Positions 18,015 through 18,416 of a DNA stretch of 64,000 bases are shown piece after piece. The position numbers and the translations under genes are program-made. Below the pieces are notes generated by a model. That model saw only the letters and a program-made list of their open reading frames with translations, did not search any database and was not told the origin of the DNA. Position 1 is the stretch's first letter. The number at the start of each line of letters is the position of its first letter. The stretch is from a virus: the IMG/VR virus record IMGVR_UViG_3300030329_006602, positions 1-64,000 of that record; one strand, 5' to 3'.

Positions 18015-18416
18015 TGGTGGAGGTGGCGGGAGTCGAACCCGCGTGTTGAGTGCTTTCAGTAGCACACTTCTACAAGTTTAGTTAATTTTTTTTAAAGTTA
18101 TGATATTAACATCCAACTTCCTGTTACAATTATTTACAGTTTATTAACAGGTAAACCTTTTCTGTTTTGCAGATGGATGACCCTCGTCCCACTCTATCTG
18201 CGTCAAGAGGGGGAGGGTTACAGCTTTAAGCTGCAAGGGCGAGCCGACGGGTCTTGCGAAGACCGCCACGCTTTGCAGCGAGACGATTCTTGAAGCCGAT
18301 GGCCCTGCTTACACGATTCTTTTTGCCATGTACAGCGTTGCACTTTTTAACGAAGCCCAGTGCGTCTTCGACTTGCGATGTACCAATCCAACATCAGTCG
18401 AATCCAGTACACCCCC
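18015..18416 (-). ncRNA. ssrA: tmRNA (one-piece), about 402 nt
   Basis: tmRNA rescues stalled ribosomes and tags the unfinished protein. The 5' end GGGGGUGUACUGGAUUCGAC and 3' end ending CCACCUCCACCA form a 7-bp acceptor stem (GGGGGUG with CACCUCC), and the T arm GGGUUCGACUCCC is intact with an encoded CCA. A pseudoknot (GAAG/CUUC and GCAC/GUGC) precedes the tag. The tag frame ends LALAA then UAA, the usual degradation signal. Resuming about 12 nt after the pseudoknot gives a 33-residue, very basic tag. Promoter and terminator flank it. Phage-borne tmRNA is uncommon. Confidence 0.95.

What the first reader, a model, noticed from the sequence alone, without database searches (positions are those of the whole stretch)
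18015..18416. Phage tmRNA with an unusually long, basic tag
All tmRNA landmarks are present, plus promoter and terminator. The frame ending LALAA-stop stays open back to about 12 nt after pseudoknot 1, giving about 33 residues with a dozen Lys/Arg (for example GGLRKTRRLALAA). Typical tags are about 8-20 residues and acidic or neutral. Inference: the tag may mimic the host's own tag or send rescued proteins to a different fate.
Basis: partly seen in the sequence, partly recalled or inferred. Interest (0 to 1): 0.72.

Follow-up and report, generated by a model that had tools for sequence, protein, structure and literature searches.

The report
Phage tmRNA with long basic tag
A bacterial virus carries its own complete ribosome-rescue RNA (tmRNA) whose add-on peptide tag is 33 residues long and strongly positively charged, and related viruses keep similar basic tags, so the tag looks functional although what its positive charge does is unknown.

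Summary
Window 18416-18015 (-) is a full-length one-piece tmRNA (ARAGORN; Rfam RF00023, 122.6 bits) with a sigma-70-type promoter and an intrinsic terminator. The resume codon is GGC, 12 nt after pseudoknot 1, with the frame-setting UA at -5/-4. The tag GKKNRVSRAIGFKNRLAAKRGGLRKTRRLALAA has 33 residues, 12 Lys/Arg and no Asp/Glu. Related phages carry the same kind of tmRNA: 22 distinct tags of one family, all net positive, 20-21 aa as a rule, 31 aa in three, 33 here. The GGC frame is under purifying selection; shifted frames are not. Among 104 bacterial tags read from four phyla plus three further loci, none has net charge of +5 or more, while four are 30 aa or longer. Basicity is the unusual part, not length. 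Most likely this is ordinary trans-translation with host SmpB (none in 30 of 30 phage records) ending in a ClpXP-type LALAA degron; the basic stretch is a conserved phage-lineage feature of unknown purpose. The host, probably in the Planctomycetes-Verrucomicrobia group, could not be sampled, so 'host-like tag' remains open.

The parts
18015..18416 (-). complete one-piece tmRNA (ssrA) gene with encoded CCA end
   Evidence: ARAGORN; Rfam RF00023 122.6 bits, full model
18229..18327 (-). tag reading frame, GGC resume codon at 18327-18325, 33 codons GKKNRVSRAIGFKNRLAAKRGGLRKTRRLALAA
   Evidence: purifying selection in this frame against relatives
18226..18228 (-). TAA stop of the tag
   Evidence: sequence
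18340..18370 (-). pseudoknot 1 (CGAAG/CTTCG with GCACT/AGTGC), ends 12 nt before the resume codon
   Evidence: with different base pairs in relatives
18328..18332 (-). UACAU directly before the resume codon; UA at -5/-4 corresponds to E. coli U85/A86
   Evidence: sequence; rule from PMC2481249 (passages)
18442..18470 (-). sigma-70-type promoter TTGACA-17-TATACT
   Evidence: 11 of 12; 6 promoter-like sites found in the region against 1.1 in shuffles
17968..17998 (-). intrinsic terminator, 14-pair stem followed by T run
   Evidence: 1 found, 0.7 expected in shuffles, so the score alone is weak
18478..19182 (-). PhoH-like gene just upstream (neighbour)
   Evidence: Pfam PF02562
16492..17709 (-). 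UvsX/RecA-like gene downstream, used to find related phages (neighbour)
   Evidence: Pfam PF00154; PHROG 97

Best explanation
A phage-borne, working tmRNA. It is transcribed from its own strong promoter, trimmed at both ends, charged with alanine by the host's alanyl-tRNA synthetase and bound by the host's SmpB. It enters ribosomes that stall on broken messages during infection. Translation resumes at GGC and adds 33 basic residues ending in LALAA, which the host's ClpXP-type protease should recognise as a degron. The basic stretch before LALAA is a conserved trait of this phage lineage. I take it to be a spacer or recognition segment suited to the host's protease or adaptor, lengthened in some members by repeating an approximately 11-residue GFK-x-R segment. 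Shown by sequence analysis: the gene, its frame, the tag family, codon constraint and the absence of a phage SmpB in the records searched. Inferred: transcription, charging, tagging, degradation and the role of the basic stretch.
For: Full-length match to RF00023 and ARAGORN. G3-U70, a 7-pair acceptor stem and PK1 in 26 of 26 distinct sequences. UA at -5/-4 before GGC, the position that sets the frame in E. coli (PMC2481249, passages). Twenty-two distinct net-positive tags of one family, all ending ALAA or AMAA. Twelve of the 14 tmRNA-bearing records have such tags; the other two are G015 (AESSQRVVDLDSIELGLEMAA) and G048 (AKYKGHISARVSLVELTASVA). In the GGC frame pS/pN is 0.469/0.214 for the 20-aa tags and 0.455/0.070 for the 31-aa tags, against about equal or reversed values in shifted frames. 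Window against the 31-aa tags: pS 0.43-0.65, pN 0.15-0.21, after dropping two window codons to align. No SmpB in 30 of 30 records, while the control finds it in 10 of 14 named genomes.
Against: No expression or tagging data exist for this phage in anything I saw. One phage of the same clade (G015) has the same upstream UACAU but an unrelated tag with net negative charge, so basicity is not indispensable. Many related records show no tmRNA (36 of 50), though their completeness is unknown. The repeat behind the long tags is only suggestive: codon shuffles reach the best self-match in 14, 9, 24 and 38 of 300 for the four 31-aa coding sequences, and 293 of 300 for the window.
Confidence: 0.78

Rival explanations
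1. The tag is simply host-like: the phage took its tmRNA from its host lineage, whose own tags are long and basic, and the tag only identifies the host.
For: Phages often share tmRNA lineage with their hosts or former hosts (PMC9004378, passages). The clade carries DUF1501 genes (14 of 40 records) and in one case an adjacent DUF1549/DUF1553 protein, which recalls Planctomycetes-Verrucomicrobia bacteria, a group not sampled here. The best plasmid match to the window's DUF1501 is in Planctomycetota at 35% identity.
Against: The 22-nt context-plus-tag pattern gave 15 genome stretches and no tmRNA, while 32 of 35 viral stretches were such tmRNAs. None of 104 bacterial tags read here resembles it or is as basic, but those phyla are probably not the host's.
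Confidence: 0.35
2. The tag changes the fate of rescued proteins: the basic stretch avoids a host adaptor, binds nucleic acid or ribosomes, or sends proteins to another protease.
For: Net charge +1 to +12 is kept in 22 distinct tags; the longest forms are also the most basic (+10 to +12). No background tag reaches +5.
Against: All of these tags end ALAA or AMAA, the normal degron end. No Pfam or PDB relative of the tag was found, and no experiment bears on it.
Confidence: 0.12
3. A decoy that titrates SmpB or blocks host rescue, as proposed for the tag-less tmRNA of mycobacteriophage DS6A.
For: A reduced phage tmRNA of this type is described (PMC11915505 and PMC4131195, passages).
Against: This gene is full length with a constrained reading frame.
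Confidence: 0.05
4. A leftover host ssrA from prophage integration at that gene.
For: ssrA is a common integration site (PMC11915505 start of abstract; PMC9004378 passages).
Against: Complete gene with its own promoter and terminator, related tmRNAs across a phage clade, no tyrosine-integrase match in 29 of 29 records.
Confidence: 0.03

Closest known systems
Standard one-piece bacterial tmRNA (Rfam RF00023)
   Same: full-length match, tRNA-like domain, G3-U70, PK1, resume codon context, tag ending LALAA
   Different: tag of 33 aa with net +12; PMC11915505 gives 10 aa as the most frequent length (passages)
Phage tmRNAs (mycobacteriophages Bxz1 and Wildcat, Bacillus phage G, methylophage Melnitz)
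   Same: phage-borne; the Wildcat tmRNA is its most highly expressed lytic gene (PMC7474061, passage)
   Different: phage G's ARAGORN tag is AKLNITNNELQVA, neither long nor basic; Melnitz is two-piece (PMC9004378, passages). The tags of Bxz1 and Wildcat were not read (the accessions I tried were not held).
Long tags of the phylum of G052, a Candidatus Uhrbacteria genome
   Same: length: median 22, up to 32 aa
   Different: net charge -3 to +3, other sequences, endings such as APVLA or APAVA

Membership tests
tmRNA (RF00023) | covariance-model match above gathering score over the full model | tested here: met
   122.6 bits against 47, positions 1-374
tmRNA (RF00023) | tRNA-like domain with Ala identity G3-U70, encoded CCA | tested here: met
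   (26 of 26 distinct sequences, window included); CCA
tmRNA (RF00023) | PK1 upstream of the resume codon | tested here: met
   26 of 26, with base-pair changes among relatives
tmRNA (RF00023) | tag reading frame with near-invariant A at -4 and small apolar C-terminus | tested here: met
   UACAU before GGC, tag ends LALAA
tmRNA (RF00023) | aminoacylation, SmpB binding, tagging in cells | not testable with these tools
   no experiment
host-like tag (acquired from host) | same or similar tag in a bacterial genome | tested here: inconclusive
ClpXP (SsrA-type) degron | C-terminal LAA | tested here: met
   LALAA end; degradation itself not testable here

The most novel reading that the evidence does not exclude
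A lineage of phages has replaced the usual short neutral or acidic rescue tag by a long, strongly basic one that it maintains by selection, and this changes where tagged proteins go during infection: past a host adaptor, onto nucleic acid or ribosomes, or to a different protease, so that the phage reprograms the host's ribosome-rescue output.
Probability: 0.13. Interest if true: 0.75.

Novelty: new variant of a known kind. Interest (0 to 1): 0.42.

Why it matters
Why phages carry their own tmRNA is open. Here is a phage clade in which the peptide itself, not only ribosome release, is under selection, with an unusual chemistry that can be swapped and assayed. It separates 'phage needs more ribosome rescue' from 'phage needs its own tag'. 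It also shows that ARAGORN misses or misreads the tag in several members, so such tags may be under-recorded.

Tried and rejected
Alternative frames: the GCA frame (AKRIV-stop in the window) is closed early here and variable in relatives, and lacks codon constraint. DNA similarity of the tmRNA in phages and plasmids gave only short 3'-end matches in unrelated records. PhoH-like relatives (about 56-65% identity) gave 74 loci without any ARAGORN tmRNA, so I moved to the UvsX/RecA-like gene. Tag peptide against PDB and Pfam at E up to 10: nothing. Duplication origin of the long tags: in-register identity 3-4 of 8 residues and 13-15 of 24 nt, weak against codon shuffles. In the RecA-like tree the long tags need at least two changes, so one origin is not supported there. 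Literature for tag strings of this family: no paper (six strings, open-access library only). Background tags come from ARAGORN, which gave no tag on 11 of 115 loci and is doubtful on some (for example L260, L218).

Full report
What is there. The window lies in a 76,331-base virus record. At 18416-18015 on the minus strand ARAGORN finds the window's only tRNA/tmRNA gene, a tmRNA. Rfam finds RF00023 from model position 1 to 374 with 122.6 bits. A TTGACA-17-TATACT promoter ends 25 nt before the mature 5' end, and a 14-pair terminator stem with a T run follows the CCA. The neighbours are a PhoH-like gene upstream and, downstream, a small ORF and a UvsX/RecA-like gene. The record also has ribonucleotide reductase genes and a DnaB-like helicase, which fits a lytic phage. 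No tyrosine integrase was found in 29 of 29 records of the group, against 14 of 14 control genomes.

The reading frame. PK1 (CGAAG/CTTCG and GCACT/AGTGC) ends 12 nt before GGC. The five bases before GGC are UACAU. In E. coli the A at -4 is nearly invariant and, with U at -5, sets the frame (PMC2481249, passages read). The frame from GGC gives GKKNRVSRAIGFKNRLAAKRGGLRKTRRLALAA, 33 residues with 12 K/R and no D/E. The GCA frame one base on stops after five codons in the window.

Relatives. A scan with the UvsX/RecA-like protein gave 67 viral loci. I searched 50 of their records with RF00023, and 14 of 50 hold a tmRNA above the cut-off. Twelve of these 14 have a tag of one family: G, N or K, K, any residue, R, V/I/A, K/R/Q and so on, ending ALAA or AMAA. 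The exceptions are G015 (AESSQRVVDLDSIELGLEMAA) and the distant G048 (AKYKGHISARVSLVELTASVA). A context-plus-tag pattern found 35 viral stretches, of which 32 are such tmRNAs. One search lists 21 distinct tags; L341 adds one. The 22 comprise one of 33 aa (the window), three of 31, three of 21 and fifteen of 20. Every one has positive net charge, from +1 to +12 (net charges printed; that of L341, +3, counted from the tag). In a 51-row tree of the UvsX/RecA-like protein, 14 of the 15 tmRNA-bearing rows, the window included, fall in one well-supported group of 28 rows (100/99); the fifteenth is G048's row. The three long-tag rows do not form one group there.

Is the tag selected? In the GGC frame the proportion of synonymous differences exceeds that of non-synonymous ones. 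The mean values are 0.469 against 0.214 (17 coding sequences of 20 codons, 131 of 136 pairs), 0.347 against 0.051 (21 codons, 6 of 6 pairs) and 0.455 against 0.070 (31 codons, 6 of 6 pairs). In the two shifted frames the values are about equal or reversed; in frame +1 of the 21-codon set 5 of 6 pairs still go the same way. The pairs are not independent. The window's own tag against the 31-codon tags, with two of its codons dropped to align, gives pS 0.43-0.65 and pN 0.15-0.21. The peptide is therefore constrained, which speaks against a decoy or pseudogene.

How unusual? From 115 bacterial tmRNA loci (four phyla and three further loci) ARAGORN gave 104 tags. None has net charge of +5 or more, 14 have +2 or more, and four are 30 aa or longer; the phylum of G052 has a median length of 22. 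The phylum of G051 is 9-10 aa with net 0 to -2 throughout. The tmRNA database paper gives 10 aa as the most frequent length (PMC11915505, passages and part of one section). So length alone has precedents; net +10 to +12 had none in this sample. The sample is small and does not include the likely host group.

Host. DUF1501 genes occur in 14 of 40 records. In 7 of the 12 DUF1501 loci fetched, a tmRNA of this family lies shortly upstream on the same strand. One locus has a DUF1549/DUF1553 protein next to DUF1501. From recalled knowledge these families are typical of Planctomycetes and Verrucomicrobia; the best plasmid match to the window's copy is a planctomycete at 35% identity. I could not reach genomes of that group, and the single genome-contig scan found no tmRNA among its 15 matching stretches. 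Whether the tag is host-like is therefore unresolved.

Long tags. The 31-aa tags equal the 20-aa form plus 11 codons, and residues 7-14 resemble residues 18-25 (3-4 of 8 identical). An in-frame repeat of the GFK-x-R segment is plausible but weak statistically, and in the window's own copy no such repeat is detectable.

Mechanism. No phage SmpB was found in 30 of 30 records, so host SmpB would be used. Established knowledge of trans-translation then predicts Ala charging (G3-U70), resumption at GGC and a C-terminal LALAA degron. Steps after the RNA sequence are inferred. The reason for the basic stretch is unknown; I favour a lineage-specific spacer or recognition segment over a changed fate of tagged proteins.

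In print. The phage-tmRNA and tag-string searches of the open-access library showed phage tmRNAs as a known kind and none of the six tag strings searched. That library lacks most subscription journals, and the tmRNA database's supplementary tables were not read.

Noticed in passing
window 3491-4831 and 5149-6435 (-); L342-L348: Two DUF1501 genes in this phage; DUF1501 occurs in 14 of 40 related records, and in 7 of 12 fetched loci it lies directly downstream of the tmRNA on the same strand, an unexplained pairing.
   Followed up: partly
L352 1-1362 (+): A viral contig of this group carries DUF1549/DUF1553 next to DUF1501, a bacterial-type gene pair seldom expected in a phage.
   Followed up: partly
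L161 (record G015): A phage of the same clade keeps the UACAU resume context but has an unrelated tag with net negative charge, AESSQRVVDLDSIELGLEMAA: a natural tag swap.
   Followed up: no
L219 and L222 (genome G052): A Candidatus Uhrbacteria genome holds two different tmRNA genes above the cut-off, with tags of 22 and 28 aa.
   Followed up: no
window 19544-20986 (-): Membrane-type protein whose C-terminal part is a long repeat of EVIKEVEVIKEVE-like units; no Pfam or PHROG match.
   Followed up: no
window 24690-63655: Most of the window is a very long run of glycosyltransferase-, nucleotide-sugar- and methyltransferase-like genes in a phage, judged by eye from the translations.
   Followed up: no
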